This document shows, piece after piece, positions 7,501-32,106 of a DNA stretch of 61,826 nt. The number at the start of each line of letters is the position of its first letter. Within the stretch, counting starts at the first letter, position 1. A model generated the notes under the pieces. It made no database searches, had not been told where the DNA came from, and worked only from the letters and a program-made list of their open reading frames with translations. Source of the stretch: a virus; the IMG/VR virus record IMGVR_UViG_3300021957_000032, positions 1-61,826 of that record; one strand, written 5' to 3'. A program made the translations under genes and the position numbers.

Positions 7501-10500
7501 ATACCACTTCTGAGACAGAAGTGATGAGTGTGAACAAGGAAAGAGTAGACTCTATTGTCGATGGTATTGTTAAGAAAACAAAAAGCCGAAATGTAGGAGA
7601 AAGCACTAACCCTCAAAAAGTTGCAGACAACGCAATTGAATATATAAAAGGTTCTAAATTATTTGAACAGTCAAATGATATAGAAAGAGAAAATATAATT
7701 AGAGATGTTAGCAAACAACTAGGTGTAGAAATAAAACCTCCTACTGCAAAAAAATTATTAGGCATTAAAAGAATAGGTAAGCCTAAGACTATTAAAGTAA
7801 AAAGTGACTACGCAGCAATGAAGAAGGATCTTCAAAAAGAAGCGAAGATTGCTAGAGATGCTAAGAACGATGTAAACAGCAGAAGAAAAGGGTTACAGAA
7901 TGCTATAGATTTAGTTGTAAAAGCAGGTAACATTACTACTAAAAAAGCCAACACATTGCTGAAAAAAGTTTCTAATGTAAATCTCTATAACGCCAAGAAA
8001 GTTCAAGACGTAGTAGATTTTACTACAAGAGCAATGAATGATGCAGAGTATTCTAAAAAGTTAGATAAGGCAAAGTCAATTCAGAAAGCTATTAAGAAAA
8101 AGCTAAAAGGTAAAGAAGCAGGTTTATCTGATTCTGCTAAAAAGTTTAGTGAAGTTAATCCGAGTAATGTAGCTGATATTGATGTGTATTTAGAAAAGGC
8201 TAATGAAGTAAGCAAGGGATTACAACCAACTAGAAAACCATCTAAGGGAGAACTTAAAGTAAGTAAGCCTTTTGATATAAAGAAAATGGATGAGTATTCT
8301 AAAAAGGAAAAAGAATTAGAAGCAAAAAGAAACTATGAGCTTGCAAAAGAATCTTTCCAAGAACTAACAGGTCTAGAGCCAGGAGATTTAACTCTTGACG
8401 AAATGAAAAAGATGATGTATGAGGTAGATGGAAACGTAAAAACTGATGAAGCTAAAGAAAAGTTTGAAAAAGAAAAAGCTGCTACAATTGATAAAGCTGT
8501 AAAAAATGCATTTAAGAATACTAAAATAAATATAAAGGGTGCTATAGAGTCAGGGGATATAAAAGTTACCAAAGAACAAAAGACTTTGATTGACAAATTC
8601 CTAAACATGAATTTAGATTTAATGACTACTAAGCAAAAAATGGAAGCATTAGATTCAATTGTAAACTTTGAACTAAACCAATCGACAGGTGGAATGCAAG
8701 CTGCATTGAGTCAACAAGTTGGTAATCTCAATATGCAAAAATTAAAAAACAAAGGGATAAAGTCTAGTGAAAAAAGCACAAGCTTAGGTAGACTTTGGAA
8801 CAAATATATTTCAACATTGCCCAATGCATTTGAACTTGTTTTTGCATCACAACAAAAAGCTAGAGCTGTAATGGATGCTATGGGTCTTGATGGGATTATA
8901 AATGGTTCTGCAAAAGCTCAAACCGAAGGAGTTAATGTAGAAAATGAATACGCAAATTCTTTTGGTAAAAAGAAAATGAAAAGTGGAATTTATTTTGATT
9001 TACAAAATGATACTGAAAGAGGAATATTAGCAGAGGTTAGAAGAGTTACACCTGGGACAGAAACTGAACAACAAGCTGAGTTTGAAAAGAGTAAAAAACT
9101 AGTCAAAGATAGTTACGAAGCTTTATTAAATTCATCAGACAAAATAAAAATAAAAAAAGGAGAGGCTATAAAAGAACAATACGAAAAACTTTTAAAAGAC
9201 TCAAAAAATATTGCAGAGGTTGAAAGCAAAGCAGATCCTGTGAATCTTCAGGGTGTAGAATATGTAACTGATTTATGGGCTAAAAAATACCCTGAGCTTG
9301 CAGACGTTTCTTTAAATGTATATAACAGAAACTTAGGTAGTGATTTAAACTATACACCTAGAAATTTTCAAAAGTTAAAGGATGCAGAGGATACTAGAGA
9401 TATAACTGAACCTGTATTTAATCCAAGTGGCAATAAAGAAAATGCTTACGACAAAGAAACAGGTGTTTTAAAACCCACAACAAAACCAAATAAACTTCCA
9501 AAAAATAAAGTATTGAATTTAAGTTTTGATTCTCAGAACATGAATAACTATAAAGCTGCTTTAACAGATATTTATACAGCATCTTCAATACAGCAAGTAA
9601 AAGGAGCTAGACAATCTAAAGCTTTTAATGAAGTATTTACAAATGAAGGGTCTAAAGAAATTCTAAAAGACAGGGTAAATAATTATGTTGATTCAAAAAG
9701 AGGCAAGAACTATTTAGATAAGAGTCAAAAAAGATTTTTAAGAAGGCTAAATAAAGTAGCTACACTAGGTGTGTCTAGAGTTTTAGGTGGGCCTACTCAA
9801 ATGCTTAAGCAAGTTATTCCTATATTTAATACAGGAGTTAATGCAGGTTTGGTAAACACATTAGAGGGAACAAGGCTAATGTTCAACCCTGATGTTAGAA
9901 AAGCAATAAATAATTCAGGCCTACCTATTGCAAATCGAGGTATACAGTCTCAAGCAGACATTGAAAATGTAGATAGTAGAATTGGTAAAAAAGCTAATAC
10001 TAATACAGGTAAAGCTATTGATGTTGCTGATAAGATAAATAAAAAGACATTAGAGTATTTCTTAGTTGCTCCTGATGTTGCAACTGCCAAGGCTTCTTTT
10101 ATTGCTTATTATTTAAACGCAATGAATAAGAAAGGTGTTAAAACGAGCGAGATAGATTTTACAAAACCTCTTGATAAAGAAGCTGCACAATTTGCACAGC
10201 AACAAGTAGATAGACAGCAAAACACTTCTGACCAAGATTTACAAGGAGAATTATTTACTGACCAAAATGCAGGTAAACAAATTTTAAGGAAAACATTATT
10301 TCCATTTGCAAACTTCTTGTTAAATCAAAAAACAAGAATGTATTCAGACGTTAACACTTTATCTAGTAAGACTACTCTTCCAGGAGATAAAACTAGAGCT
10401 ATTAAATCTTTAGGTGGGTTAGCTGCTGAAACAGTAACTTTTAACGCTGTTGGATTAGGAATAACTCAAATGCTTAGTGCTTTAGCTAGAGAGGTTTCAG

Positions 10501-23415: not shown

Positions 23416-24075
23416 TTAATTTGATTTAATTATATCTTTAACTGCTTCTTCAAAGTTGTCGCCTAAATACTCTTGAAGGTTTGCATCTAGATAATATCCT
23501 TTTAGATGTATTCCCTCAGCATTTGTATATTTGTTTGGAAGAAAATATATCTCATCATTATCTGTGTCCTCCCAATCTGGTAAGTCCCATTCAAGTGAAT
23601 AAGTTTCTTCTCCATTATCAAACTCAAACTCTGCACCCCAACCTTGTTCCTCTTCAAAATAATAACTGAAAGTTGGTATGTCTTTGACAAAATGCTCTAA
23701 GATGATTTCTTCATCAATCGGCCCCCATGCTGAGGTAAATCTGTACGTTCCGTCATCGTACTCATTTTCATAGCAACCCCACTTTGTACCCCAATTCTTG
23801 TAAGCCCAATCATACCAATTGTCATACCCATATCTATCTAGCAGGTATTCTCTTCTGTCTTTTGTGATTGGATAGGACTTATACTTGGCTGTCTCGTTTA
23901 GTTTCATCTGCTTTGCGTATTCCTGCTCGCTCACTACTCTGCATGGACTAGTGGTCTGTATTAGTTCTTCAGGCATTGGCCTGTAGTATCGACATAGCCC
24001 TACTTTGGCTATCTCTTCTAACTTTTTCTCGTATTTTTCTTCTACTGTAATCTGTGCGTAACAATGATTCGGCAT
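23416..24075 (-). CDS. Api92-like ferredoxin-fold protein
   Basis: 219 aa. The MPNHCYAQITV start, YDWAYKNWGTKWGCYE (about 110-125) and TSAWGPIDEE (about 138) match the phage/plasmid Api92-like (YubB, DUF1281) family: a ferredoxin-like fold with a conserved W-G-T-K-W. The family is widespread in mobile elements and of uncertain function. Acidic overall. A structured 200-base leader precedes it. Confidence 0.7.
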   Translation of the reverse strand: MPNHCYAQITVEEKYEKKLEEIAKVGLCRYYRPMPEELIQTTSPCRVVSEQEYAKQMKLNETAKYKSYPITKDRREYLLDRYGYDNWYDWAYKNWGTKWGCYENEYDDGTYRFTSAWGPIDEEIILEHFVKDIPTFSYYFEEEQGWGAEFEFDNGEETYSLEWDLPDWEDTDNDEIYFLPNKYTNAEGIHLKGYYLDANLQEYLGDNFEEAVKDIIKSN

Positions 24076-24278
24076 AATATATTAAATTTAAAGTTACCTC
24101 CTTGGAGGGGCGTCTTTCCGTCCTGTCAGTCTTATTGTAATTTGTGTATGATTAAACCCTTTTCTCATAGGCGTGAGTCTACACTTTAACTGTTAAGCAT
24201 TACAACGGCCTACATTAGCGACAACTAAGGATTATTATATGACTCACTTCAATAACTTTAAGATGAGTGTGAACAATA
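24076..24278 (-). promoter_or_regulatory. Structured leader upstream of the Api92-like gene
   Basis: No gene is seen. On the minus strand GTGAGTC (24247-24241) and GACTCAC (24179-24173) can close a stem around about 60 bases that contains TTAACTGTTAA. Further on, CCTCC-AA-GGAGG (near 24096-24107) is a short perfect hairpin that hides a Shine-Dalgarno-like GGAGG. A copy of the 14-bp repeat lies at 24262-24275. It could be a regulated 5' UTR; no known riboswitch class was recognised. Confidence 0.4.
24262..24275 (+). repeat. 14-bp dispersed repeat, copy 4
   Basis: Intergenic, in the leader of the Api92-like gene. It shares an 18-base match (TTAAGATGAGTGTGAACA) with copy 5. Confidence 0.85.
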
Positions 24279-27821: not shown

Positions 27822-28034
27822 TTAGATTTTTTGTAGCTCTCTTGCGATTGCTCGTTCGACTCTTCTAAATTTGTAAATTCTTGTTGCCTCTGTCCAGGAA
27901 CACTGGACTTCGTGCATAATGTCTTTGACAACCTCTCCAAAGTTTTTATTAAATTGAATTTGTTTGTCTCTTTCTTCTTTTGCCACTTGTTCGATTACTA
28001 CAGTAACCGAGTTGGTTTTGATACGTTTTCTCAT
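27822..28034 (-). CDS. Hypothetical basic protein, 70 aa
   Basis: Starts MRKRIKTNSVTVVIEQVAKE and ends RRVERAIARELQKI: basic ends around a Cys-Trp-containing centre (HEVQCSWTEATRIYKF). It could be a small DNA-binding protein. It is the first gene after the structured 28-kb region, and TATGTTTG at 28108-28101 (minus) could be its -7 box. Confidence 0.5.
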   Translation of the reverse strand: MRKRIKTNSVTVVIEQVAKEERDKQIQFNKNFGEVVKDIMHEVQCSWTEATRIYKFRRVERAIARELQKI

Positions 28035-28057: not shown

Positions 28058-28102
28058 TGGCATGGAGGGATTCGAACCCTCAGCAGTCCTAACTACATGC
28101 CA
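28058..28102 (-). ncRNA. tRNA-like mini-element (acceptor and T arm only)
   Basis: On the minus strand TGGCATG, a 14-base spacer, GAGGG-TTCGAAT-CCCTC and CATGCCA follow in order. The 7-bp acceptor stem and 5-bp T stem pair perfectly and the T loop has the standard TTCGAAT. A D arm and anticodon arm are missing, so it is not a normal tRNA. It may be a tRNA remnant, or a processing signal for RNase P or Z. TATGTTTG at 28108-28101 could instead be a promoter box overlapping it. Confidence 0.5.
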
Positions 28103-28620
28103 AACATATTACCTTGATACATTCCTGTCTTCCCAATATTGTATCTCTGTAATATCGTTTCTCTTTCGGTTTACAACACAGACTCTCCACTTGCTAGGTG
28201 TGTCTGTCTGTCCGTTCTAGTAATAACGAGAGGCAATTTTACGGCTCTCTACTATATCGAAATAATATAGTTCACTCTATGCTTTATAGGTAGTCTTGAT
28301 ACTTTACCCTTACATAGCCTCTACCTCATACAATTTGGTAGGTTATCAGTTATCTAAATACTTTAAGCCATAGGCGTTGCCATACGTGTACAAGGTGTTT
28401 TTGATAGTCTAGGCGTTGCCATAGATTACCCCTTGAGGTGCTTTGTATTACGTTGTAATTTTTTACGTGCCTGAATACTTGTTTTGAGTTTCATCTTGAG
28501 TTTAGTAAGGGCATAGATTACCCTTGTGTCGTATAGGTGCCGACTCTCTTTATCTACTAACTAACAATAGAATTGTTTCAAGTATCCAATATGTCAAAGA
28601 ACGAGATTAAAAAAACTTTT
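28103..28620 (-). ncRNA. Candidate large structured non-coding RNA or leader
   Basis: About 520 bases with no ORF longer than about 22 codons on the minus strand. Local stems seen there: AACAAT/ATTGTT, AAGGG/CCCTT, CTACC/GGTAG, CTATAT/ATATAG, GAGAG/CTCTC and ACAGAC/GTCTGT. TATGGCAACGCCTA occurs twice (28366-28382 and 28410-28423 area) and GGTAATCTATG twice. Near the 5' end, GTTCTTTGACAT resembles rRNA-leader boxA. With the tRNA-like element it recalls phage ornate large RNAs, but no known family was identified. Confidence 0.4.
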
Positions 28621-28626
28621 ACGCTT

Positions 28627-28641
28627 GTACGCTTTGCGATA
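28627..28641. repeat. 15-bp direct repeat, copy 1
   Basis: GTACGCTTTGCGATA, identical to 28674-28688, 47 bases apart. It lies between the putative non-coding RNA and the first early gene's end. Confidence 0.85.
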
Positions 28642-28673
28642 CAAAAACATTTTTAAAATCCTACCTTTAAAAC

Positions 28674-28688
28674 GTACGCTTTGCGATA
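28674..28688. repeat. 15-bp direct repeat, copy 2
   Basis: Identical to 28627-28641. A possible pair of protein-binding sites. Confidence 0.85.
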
Positions 28689-28721
28689 CGCTAAAGAGGT
28701 GCAATTTTATAGACTTTTTTT

Positions 28722-28792: not shown

Positions 28793-29281
28793 CTATGCTT
28801 TGACTAATTTAGCCGAAATAATAGCATTTAAAGAGGTCTCAAAATCCAAACCTTTTTCGATTTGTAGCTTTGTTATGCCTTGAATAAGTTGTTCAAATCT
28901 ATATACGTTAAAATTCCCTTTAATTAGTGTTACGGCTTCAGATAACAAAGGAATAAATTTAGCCTTGTTTTTTTCAGAGGTTAAAAAATTAATAGCTTTT
29001 TTGCACTCGTTTTGGTACGCAATATTTTTGTGCGATTTCGTGCTAACATTGTCAAGTTTTGCCGTTCTTTTTACCTCTAACAAGCAAAGCATCGCATCGG
29101 TTTTATATGCGTTCTTTTCGGTTTTTCTTCTAGCACTTTGCACGTTCGCAAATTGTGGGTTTAATGCACGTTTTTTAGCGATTGCCTCTTTTTGTGCGTT
29201 TGTCATTGGTTTACGTGTTACGACTTTTTTAGCCGTTGCGATTGTGTTAACTACTGAATTACTTTTAATTGAATTCTTCAT
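28793..29281 (-). CDS. First early protein, basic, 162 aa
   Basis: Very basic first 60 residues (KKVVTRKPMTNAQKEAIAKK, then ARRKTEKNAYK) suggest nucleic-acid binding. The remainder is helical with no known motif. It is the first gene of the leftward block, behind a near-consensus promoter and before a possible pseudoknot, so it may be a very early regulator. Function unknown. Confidence 0.6.
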   Translation of the reverse strand: MKNSIKSNSVVNTIATAKKVVTRKPMTNAQKEAIAKKRALNPQFANVQSARRKTEKNAYKTDAMLCLLEVKRTAKLDNVSTKSHKNIAYQNECKKAINFLTSEKNKAKFIPLLSEAVTLIKGNFNVYRFEQLIQGITKLQIEKGLDFETSLNAIISAKLVKA

Positions 29282-29351: not shown

Positions 29352-29872
29352 AATAAAAACAAAAATAAAACAAAATAAATTCTTGATCTTTTTAACTGAG
29401 CTTTTAAAATGAATAGTTAAATTGTTGATTATCAGCGTCTTAAGTCGTCAAAGTAATGCTGGAAATCGCAAAATAAAAATTCAAAATAATTTAAAAATAA
29501 ATTTATTCAATAGGTTTTTATTGTGTTTTGGTGTGTTTTTTTTGGTGGGTTTAGTATTAAAAAAGTTAAGCATTTTAAAAAATTAGGGCATTGTTAACCC
29601 TTTCTTTAGTATTGTGTAAAACAAAAACAAAGGGGGCAAAGGGTTTGTTTTGTGTGTGTGTGTGGGTGCGTGGCATGGCGTGGGGGCGTGGGGCGTGGGT
29701 GGTGGTGGTGGTGTGGGGGTGTGGGGTGTAGCAAAAAGCTAAAAAGATGCAACAATAAAAACGGCTTTTAAAAGTACCCCCCCTATCAAAAAAAAGATCG
29801 CCTTCCGATGAGGGATGATCGCTGTATTTTATATTATTACCCAGAGCCTCTTTATAAGTGATATTAATTTTG
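29352..29872. other. Divergence region with G-rich, strand-asymmetric block
   Basis: No supported gene. 29352-29580 is very AT-rich. 29640-29737 on the plus strand is almost only G and T: GTGTGTGTGTG, then GGGGGCGTGGGGCGTGGG and several GTGG repeats, enough for G-quadruplexes. At 29795-29825 GATCGCC...GATCGC can form an imperfect hairpin. The block lies between the leftward and rightward operons, as expected for an origin or R-loop site. Confidence 0.5.
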
Positions 29873-30540: not shown

Positions 30541-32106
30541 ATGAATCCAAAAGAATTATCCTTCGATCAAGAGGGGAGAGACAAATTATTAAACGGAATC
30601 ACTACAATTTCCAGAGCAGTTAAAAGTACATTAGGGCCACTCGGCAAAACAGTATTAATAGAATCACCAAACCACAGAGGAGGAATTACAATTACAAAAG
30701 ACGGTGTGACTGTAGCTAAATCAATTGACTTAGAAGACTCGGTAGAGAATCTAGCAATTACTATGATGAAGGAGGCTGCAGACCGAACAGCAACCTCAGC
30801 AGGAGACGGAACTACTACTGCGATTGTTTTAACTGAGGCTATTGTAAAGGAAGGAATGCGTTTGATTCAGAGAAACCCTGAGATAAATACCACACAATTA
30901 ATTAGAGACATCAAGTCTCATTCAGAGGAGGTAATAAAATCTTTAAGCAGTTCATCAAAAAAAGTAACTGGAAAAACATTACGTGATGTTGCTACAATAT
31001 CTGCGAACAACGATTCTGTTTTAGGAAAGATGATTGCTAGTGCGTACAAAGAGTTGGGTAAAGACGGAATACTTACAGTAGAAAATAGTAAGACTGAAAA
31101 AACATACTACGAGGTAACTAAAGGAATTAAGATTGACAGAGGATATTCTTCAAAGCTATTTATCAATAATCACAGAAACGATGAATGTATACTAGATGAT
31201 GTATATGTTTTGATGACGGACATGGAGATTACCAATATACTTCAGATTGAAAATATATTAAAGCCAATAATAAACCAAAACAAAAAACTTCTAGTGATTG
31301 GGAACTGTTCTCAAAATGTAACAAACACATTAGCAGCGAATGTAGTTCAGAATAATTTAAAGCTCTGTAATATTATACCACCATCGTTTGGTTACAAAAC
31401 AAATGAACTGATGAGTGATATTGCTTTGGCAATAGGTGCAAAATATTTTAGCGAGTCGCAGGGCGACAACATTGGGATGTTGACAATGGAAGATTTAGGA
31501 CATGCTGATAAAATTATTGTAGGAAAAGATGGAACTGTAATTATGAATGACGAAGTTCAAGATGCTAAGTCTAGAATTTCTGAGTTGAAAGTTCAGAAAG
31601 AAAACAATAAGGACAAGAAAGAAAGAGATTTCATTACCGAACGTATTGCATTGTTGTCAGGAGCTGTAGGCGTAATTTATGTTGGGGCTGATTCTGATAT
31701 TGAGCAGAAAGAAAAGTATGATCGTGTAGAAGATGCAGTATGTGCAGTAAAATCAGCGATTGAAGAAGGAATTCTTCCAGGAGGAGGGGTAGCTCTTTTG
31801 AGATGTGCAGAAAAACTAGGAGACGGAGACTCAAATGACGTTATGTACGGAGCTTTGATTTCACCACTAGAGCAGATACTTACAAATGCAGGTGAAAACA
31901 TAAAAGAAATTAGAGATAAAATTTGTAGTTGTGCAGATGCTCCACATAATTTTGGATATGACGTAAAAAATAAAGTTTTTGGCGACATGTACAAGATGGG
32001 AGTTATAGATCCTGCAAAAGTTACAAAGAATGCGTTGAAAAATGCAGTAAGTGTAGCGACAACAATATTAAGCACCAATGCAATTGTAACAATGAAAAGA
32101 AAATAA
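30541..32106 (+). CDS. groEL: Chaperonin GroEL (Hsp60), phage-encoded
   Basis: 521 aa, against about 545 for host GroEL. TLGPLGKTVLI (about 31-41), TKDGVTVAKSI (about 50-60, equivalent of D52), GDGTTTAIVL (about 86-95, D87), VEDAV (about 393-397, D398) and ILPGGGVALL (about 407-416) are all kept, so ATPase function is plausible. The flexible GGM tail of host GroEL is missing. It probably helps fold abundant coat or fibre proteins. It is followed after one base by groES. Confidence 0.95.
   Translation: MNPKELSFDQEGRDKLLNGITTISRAVKSTLGPLGKTVLIESPNHRGGITITKDGVTVAKSIDLEDSVENLAITMMKEAADRTATSAGDGTTTAIVLTEAIVKEGMRLIQRNPEINTTQLIRDIKSHSEEVIKSLSSSSKKVTGKTLRDVATISANNDSVLGKMIASAYKELGKDGILTVENSKTEKTYYEVTKGIKIDRGYSSKLFINNHRNDECILDDVYVLMTDMEITNILQIENILKPIINQNKKLLVIGNCSQNVTNTLAANVVQNNLKLCNIIPPSFGYKTNELMSDIALAIGAKYFSESQGDNIGMLTMEDLGHADKIIVGKDGTVIMNDEVQDAKSRISELKVQKENNKDKKERDFITERIALLSGAVGVIYVGADSDIEQKEKYDRVEDAVCAVKSAIEEGILPGGGVALLRCAEKLGDGDSNDVMYGALISPLEQILTNAGENIKEIRDKICSCADAPHNFGYDVKNKVFGDMYKMGVIDPAKVTKNALKNAVSVATTILSTNAIVTMKRK

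What the first reader, a model, noticed from the sequence alone, without database searches (positions are those of the whole stretch)
28058..28620. Largest non-coding stretch looks like a structured RNA
About 560 bases without a credible ORF hold at least six local stems on the minus strand, two internal repeated words, a boxA-like GTTCTTTGACAT near the 5' end and a tRNA-like end. Ornate large RNAs (GOLLD and ROOL types) are known from phages and lie near tRNAs. This could be a new member or an antitermination leader for the early block.
Basis: partly seen in the sequence, partly recalled or inferred. Interest (0 to 1): 0.7.

Follow-up and report, generated by a model that had tools for sequence, protein, structure and literature searches.

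The report
Phage noncoding RNA with tRNA-like tail
A Bacteroidota phage carries a ~550-base noncoding RNA that starts with the host's ribosomal-RNA antitermination signal, contains repeated bulged hairpins and ends in the top half of a tRNA; related phages keep this layout while most letters change, so it is a real, undescribed structured RNA whose job is unknown.

Summary
Window 28058-28602 (minus strand), with flanking hairpins up to 28692, is noncoding and encodes a structured RNA. No Rfam family reaches threshold in the window or ten related loci, so it is not a detectable GOLLD or ROOL. Ten further distinct IMG/VR versions lie in the same slot, between a basic ~160-aa gene and a 70-aa gene wherever both are on the contig.

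Parts: (1) exact boxA GTTCTTTGACAT, whose extended form precedes 16S/23S rRNA in Bacteroidota at 18 or more sites; (2) a closing stem right after it; (3) two pairs of short hairpins with one bulged base and a 5-base loop, the cap repeated within a genome and different between genomes; (4) a conserved core; (5) a 3' end made of a 7+5 bp acceptor/T-arm "minihelix" (T-loop TTCGAAT) without anticodon arm. Elements 2-5 show compensatory changes.

Best explanation: a boxA-antiterminated phage RNA, bound by a phage protein at the bulged hairpins and released by tRNA-processing enzymes at the minihelix. Main rival: a nut-like cis antitermination leader. Structure is shown; transcription, processing, partner and function are inferred.

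The parts
28793..29281 (-). P1: 162-aa basic protein gene directly upstream of the RNA, candidate RNA-binding partner (motif TNAQKEAIAKKRALNP)
   Evidence: Conserved upstream neighbour in relatives; no Pfam or PHROG family; predicted all-helical with disordered N-terminus, no solved relative. RNA binding is inferred only.
28671..28692 (-). Front bulged hairpin 1: AGCGTA-T-CG-CAAAG-CG-TACGTT
   Evidence: compensated relative to L178 (ATGTATGGCAAAGCCTACAT) and others
28624..28645 (-). Front bulged hairpin 2: TTTGTA-T-CG-CAAAG-CG-TACAAG
28591..28602 (-). boxA GTTCTTTGACAT
   Evidence: Single exact copy; extended word precedes 16S/23S rRNA in Bacteroidota
28579..28589 (-). 5' arm of the closing stem of domain I (TTGGATACTTG)
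   Evidence: Pairs with 28471-28481; 97.9% of cells paired over six genomes of both RNA groups; consensus fold
28471..28481 (-). 3' arm of the closing stem of domain I (CAAGTATTCAG)
28408..28425 (-). Body bulged hairpin 1: TCTA-T-GG-CAACG-CC-TAGA
28369..28386 (-). Body bulged hairpin 2: CGTA-T-GG-CAACG-CC-TATG
28251..28366 (-). Conserved core: stem CCTACC/GGTAG-A-G with bulged A, stem CTATG/CATAG, then a hairpin
   Evidence: 100% of cells paired over six genomes, 8 of 11 pairs with changes on both sides
28058..28102 (-). 3' acceptor/T-arm minihelix: TGGCATG (28096-28102), 14-nt linker (28082-28095), T stem-loop GAGGG-TTCGAAT-CCCTC (28065-28081), CATGCCA (28058-28064)
   Evidence: Rfam tRNA 28.5 bits, E 0.0012; ten-sequence count 97.5% paired, 9 of 12 pairs with changes on both sides; one strong copy per record searched
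27822..28034 (-). P2: 70-aa gene that starts about 25 nt after the minihelix; conserved downstream neighbour

Best explanation
The minus strand of 28602-28058 encodes a long structured noncoding RNA of a Bacteroidota phage, sitting as its own unit inside the minus-strand operon. Steps: (1) RNA polymerase transcribes boxA and host Nus factors bind it, as on rRNA, so that the long untranslated stretch is not cut short [inferred from the boxA match]. (2) The RNA folds into a closed domain right after boxA, a core and two pairs of bulged hairpins [structure shown comparatively]. (3) The bulged hairpins bind a phage protein, most likely the basic protein P1 encoded just upstream [inferred]. (4) The acceptor/T-arm minihelix at the 3' end is recognised as the top half of a tRNA by RNase P and/or tRNase Z, which separates the RNA from the downstream mRNA [inferred from geometry and known enzyme specificity]. 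The product is a discrete phage ribonucleoprotein acting in trans; its target is unknown.
For: Noncoding. Ten further distinct versions in the same gene slot. Minihelix kept in ten versions with complete turnover of its letters, one strong copy per record. boxA word in Bacteroidota rRNA leaders. Closing stem in both RNA groups, core stems, bulged hairpins. Acceptor/T-stem minihelices are used as RNase P substrates, the rest of the tRNA being dispensable for binding (PMC11221534). Type of P1 and type of RNA go together.
Against: No transcript or processing data. Folding energy is only mildly low. In L020, L035 and L038 the hairpin is kept but its T-loop is lost, so tRNA-enzyme recognition is not universal. 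No CCA is encoded after the minihelix. Group B RNAs lack the bulged hairpins, and the P1/RNA association rests on one split, so it could be simple linkage. Relative L013 lacks the element.
Confidence: 0.5

Rival explanations
1. A cis-acting antitermination leader working like lambda nut sites: boxA recruits Nus factors, the paired bulged hairpins act like boxB, basic protein P1 plays the part of N, and RNA polymerase becomes resistant to terminators over the roughly 17 kb of minus-strand genes downstream. The minihelix only trims the leader from the mRNA.
For: boxA; genome-specific repeated hairpins with five-base loops close to boxA; basic protein with an N-like lysine/arginine-rich helix encoded next to it; position at the start of a long early operon.
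Against: 434-727 nt with a conserved core is far longer than a nut site; P1 lies upstream of the element rather than under its control; hairpin placement relative to boxA varies between genomes; group B has boxA but no such hairpins; L013 lacks the element yet keeps a comparable operon.
Confidence: 0.3
2. A tRNA-mimicking decoy: the minihelix titrates RNase P, tRNase Z, T-loop modification enzymes or elongation factor, and the rest of the RNA stabilises it.
For: Exact 7+5 bp tRNA geometry and T-loop in most versions.
Against: The T-loop is lost in L020, L035 and L038 while the hairpin is kept; it does not explain boxA, the core or the paired hairpins; one copy per genome.
Confidence: 0.06
3. 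A divergent member of a known ornate-RNA family such as GOLLD or ROOL that forms an RNA-only cage.
For: Phage origin, length of 434-727 nt, complex fold, tRNA-related end; GOLLD linkers sometimes hold phage tRNAs (PMC12286853).
Against: No match at gathering score in the window or ten related loci; nothing of those families at E up to 10 in the window region; no tRNA genes in the window.
Confidence: 0.03
4. Conserved DNA features (mobile palindromes, operators) or a decayed tRNA locus rather than a functional RNA.
For: Bulged hairpins are near-palindromic and repeated; the window linker looks like the remains of a tRNA.
Against: Caps are confined to one strand and one region; the single bulge on the 5' side is an RNA-type feature; compensatory changes occur in stems 10-400 nt apart, including the closing stem and core, while intervening letters turn over; decay would not keep a 12-bp helix in ten versions.
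Confidence: 0.05

Closest known systems
Bacteroidota rRNA leaders with boxA (rrn antitermination)
   Same: Same boxA word in front of a long untranslated structured RNA, followed by a closing stem
   Different: Phage operon, not rRNA; no sequence likeness beyond boxA
Lambda N/nut antitermination
   Same: boxA plus phage-specific small hairpins plus a basic phage protein gene next door; working resemblance only
   Different: Several paired hairpins with a bulged base, a ~500-nt conserved fold, a tRNA-like 3' end, P1 upstream; no likeness of P1 to any known family
GOLLD and ROOL RNAs
   Same: Large structured phage RNAs of unknown function, often near tRNAs (PMC12286853)
   Different: No covariance-model match; tRNA half is built into the 3' end rather than a tRNA gene nearby
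MALAT1/mascRNA-type 3' ends
   Same: From general knowledge: a long RNA followed by a tRNA-like element cut by RNase P; mascRNA model hits weakly at the minihelix (17.6 and 19.3 bits, gathering 42.5)
   Different: Eukaryotic and unrelated; here only acceptor and T arms exist; cutting not shown
MS2-type coat-protein operator hairpin
   Same: From general knowledge: stem, one bulged base, GG/CC pairs, small loop
   Different: Five-base rather than four-base loop; bulged U in the window; no related protein found

Membership tests
GOLLD / ROOL (Rfam) | Match to the family covariance model at gathering score | tested here: not met
   permissive scan of the region
GOLLD / ROOL (Rfam) | Homo-oligomeric RNA cage | not testable with these tools
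   needs cryo-EM
tRNA | Acceptor stem and T-arm with T-loop | tested here: met
   lost T-loop in L020, L035, L038
tRNA | D arm and anticodon arm | tested here: not met
   absent
tmRNA | 5' acceptor strand hundreds of bases from the T-arm, tag ORF, Rfam/ARAGORN match | tested here: not met
   acceptor strand 14 nt or less from the T-arm; no match
N/nut-type antitermination system | boxA | tested here: met
N/nut-type antitermination system | boxB hairpin next to boxA bound by an N-like protein | tested here: inconclusive
   Paired bulged hairpins in group A only; P1 basic but without a known family
N/nut-type antitermination system | Terminator read-through | not testable with these tools
   needs a reporter assay
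Rfam DUF2693 RNA | Match to the family covariance model at gathering score | tested here: not met
   18.8 bits against 81.3, starting on the shared boxA stretch

The most novel reading that the evidence does not exclude
A new class of phage ribonucleoprotein: a boxA-antiterminated long RNA whose 3' end is set by a stripped-down tRNA minihelix used as a processing handle, with a co-diverging phage protein that reads genome-specific bulged hairpins.
Probability: 0.35. Interest if true: 0.8.

Novelty: new variant of a known kind. Interest (0 to 1): 0.62.

Why it matters
It adds an RNA family without an Rfam match to the short list of large structured phage RNAs, with an anatomy that suggests how such an RNA could be made: the host's rRNA antitermination signal at one end and a minimal tRNA half at the other. 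Each step is directly testable in vitro. If the hairpin/protein pairing is right, the natural variants form a set of matched RNA-protein pairs comparable with N and boxB.

Tried and rejected
Pattern TAAYCTATGGCAACGCCTA in viral contigs: five hits, all chance matches inside coding genes of unrelated phages. Core pattern in viral contigs: eight hits; four are chance matches in a coding gene, three are contigs already held, one (L178) is a new close relative. Host genomes with the P1 alignment: none. Phage records with the RNA as DNA: one weak partial hit (6% of the query, E 0.9). Phage records with P1: none. Plasmids: none. P1 fold: all helical, no solved relative. groEL relatives L013, L027 and L028 lack the RNA where their sequence reaches. 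An Elemovirus phage and MW202828 do not carry it recognisably. Folding energy as evidence: too weak. Rfam tRNA model on single relatives L016, L024, L039: no tRNA report. Kissing of the paired hairpin loops: by inspection the loops are not complementary. A link between bulge identity (U or A) and P1 subtype: dropped because by inspection L039 seems to have both. My hairpin scans of the loci read short alignment rows instead of the loci because of a naming clash; the window part is unaffected, and the loci were rescanned correctly.

Full report
WHAT IS THERE. The window is a 61,826-base virus record. It has a phage chaperonin groEL at 30541-32106 +, and its nearest annotated relatives are mostly phages of Bacteroidota. 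The minus-strand operon begins with a 162-aa basic gene (P1, 28793-29281), followed by 758 bases without a gene and then a 70-aa gene (P2, 27822-28034). In the RNA sense the longest ATG frame is 22 codons and no frame is kept across relatives.

5' END. GTTCTTTGACAT occurs exactly once (28591-28602 -). Allowing two mismatches, the word is at chance in this window, so the word alone proves little. Scanning GTDB genomes for CGTTCTTTGACATATTGR gave a capped list of 120 stretches; most of those with a title shown are Bacteroidota. At least 18 of 123 sites lie 62-206 nt upstream of a 16S or 23S rRNA start; further Mucilaginibacter sites share the same leader text. It is therefore a boxA of this phylum, although many copies sit in other contexts. 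boxA is the key element for rRNA antitermination in E. coli (PMC10250234).

3' END. The RNA ends with UGGCAUG - 14 nt - GAGGG UUCGAAU CCCUC - CAUGCCA. Rfam's tRNA model aligns it at 28.5 bits (gathering 29; E 0.0012) with the D and anticodon arms skipped; ARAGORN finds no tRNA. In relatives the linker is 0-1 nt (L015, L016, L017, L019, L024, L039) or carries an extra hairpin (L012), leaving 7+5 bp (6+5 in some) and a T-loop. Across ten sequences 97.5% of cells pair, 9 of 12 pairs have changes on both sides, and no shuffle out of 500 or slid register comes near the covariation score. A covariance model finds one strong copy per phage record, here. In L020, L035 and L038 the hairpin stays but the T-loop is replaced by AGNGAT. 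Acceptor/T-stem minihelices are used as RNase P substrates, and the rest of the tRNA is dispensable for binding (PMC11221534). In L016, L024 and L039 the Rfam tRNA model alone does not report the element.

MIDDLE. Relatives were fetched through P1, P2, groEL and a core pattern, giving ten further distinct versions: L012, L015, L016, L017, L019, L020, L024, L035, L039 and L178, plus near-copies L032 and L050 and the partial L038. Two RNA groups exist: A (window, L012, L015, L019, L024, L035, L039, L178) and B (L016, L017, L020). They match two weakly similar types of P1; L178 starts after P1 and L024 ends before P2, so those neighbours are unseen there. Both groups have a stem that closes a domain right after boxA (97.9% paired in six genomes, four pairs with changes on both sides). 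Group A shares a core with a bulged-A stem and a second stem (100% paired in six genomes, eight of eleven pairs with changes on both sides); an automatic alignment and fold of four members gives 24 of 90 pairs with a kept double change.

BULGED HAIRPINS. Group A carries short hairpins: outer stem, one bulged base (U or A), two G-C pairs, five-base loop. The cap is repeated in a genome and differs between genomes: window CGCAAAGCG twice and GGCAACGCC twice; L035 GGTCAATCC four times; L019 GGCAAGTCC and GGCAAGACC; L039 GGCTTGACC twice. Copies within a pair lie about 30-48 nt apart. Seventeen copies from six genomes (window, L012, L015, L019, L035, L178) and one from L039 were counted together: 93.3% paired cells and changes on both sides in all seven pairs (first count). 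A fixed descriptor finds them about 40 times more densely inside the RNA strand than elsewhere in the same loci, though the descriptor was derived from these hairpins. In 20 shuffles of the window strand no cap was repeated.

INTERPRETATION. Shown: a conserved, noncoding, structured RNA element with boxA at one end and a tRNA half at the other, in a fixed gene slot. Inferred: antitermination by Nus factors, binding of P1 to the bulged hairpins, cutting by RNase P and/or tRNase Z, and a role in trans. A nut-like cis leader is the chief rival and shares the first steps; the long core, the 3' minihelix and the variable hairpin placement tip me towards a discrete RNA. Loss of the element in L013 shows that it is not essential to all relatives.

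LIMITS. Only viral contigs were available and there are no transcript data. Stem arms were picked by hand from folds and inspection, so the percentage paired is optimistic; the changes on both sides are the informative part. Related sequences are not independent events. The P1/RNA-type association is one split.

KNOWN RELATIVES. No Rfam family reaches threshold. GOLLD and ROOL (PMC12286853) share only the general description. The Rfam DUF2693 RNA scores 18.8 against 81.3, on a stretch that starts at the boxA. The literature searches made here did not surface a described RNA of this build, but the library holds open-licence papers only.

Noticed in passing
window 29633-29720: Very G-rich low-complexity tract (GTG/GGGG repeats) between the minus operon and the divergent plus-strand genes; possible origin or regulatory feature.
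   Followed up: no
window 30541-32106 +: Phage-encoded chaperonin GroEL; 19 IMG/VR relatives and 237 phage records with a match.
   Followed up: partly
window 28793-29281 - and 27822-28034 -: P1 and P2 both begin with a similar N-terminal stretch (KSNSV / KTNSV), as if the N-terminus had been copied.
   Followed up: no
L029 (MW202828.1) 7868-8090 +: Distant groEL relative: an exact GTTCTTTGACAT about 260 nt before the first plus-strand early gene and a hairpin-like TTCGAGGT stretch near 8055, with the palindrome GTGTCGTTAACGACAC repeated between genes; could be a far cousin of this leader.
   Followed up: partly
L171 (MT497078.1) 23733-24187 +: Elemovirus early operon also starts with a boxA-like GTTCTTTC and about 450 nt of apparently structured noncoding sequence; no T-arm minihelix seen.
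   Followed up: partly
L052, L054, L077 and about 20 other genome-contig loci: CGTTCTTTGACATATTGGTTTACACG recurs upstream of assorted genes in gut Bacteroidales, often shortly before a TATCTTTGC-like promoter element; not rRNA.
   Followed up: no
window 28526-28602 -: Rfam DUF2693 RNA begins with the same boxA stretch, so that family may also be boxA-led.
   Followed up: no
L012 5602-5655 -: The minihelix linker holds an extra perfect hairpin CTGAGGGTTAACCCTCAG, apparently copied from the T-arm; the window and L178 linkers keep UAG after the acceptor and look like the remains of a full tRNA.
   Followed up: partly
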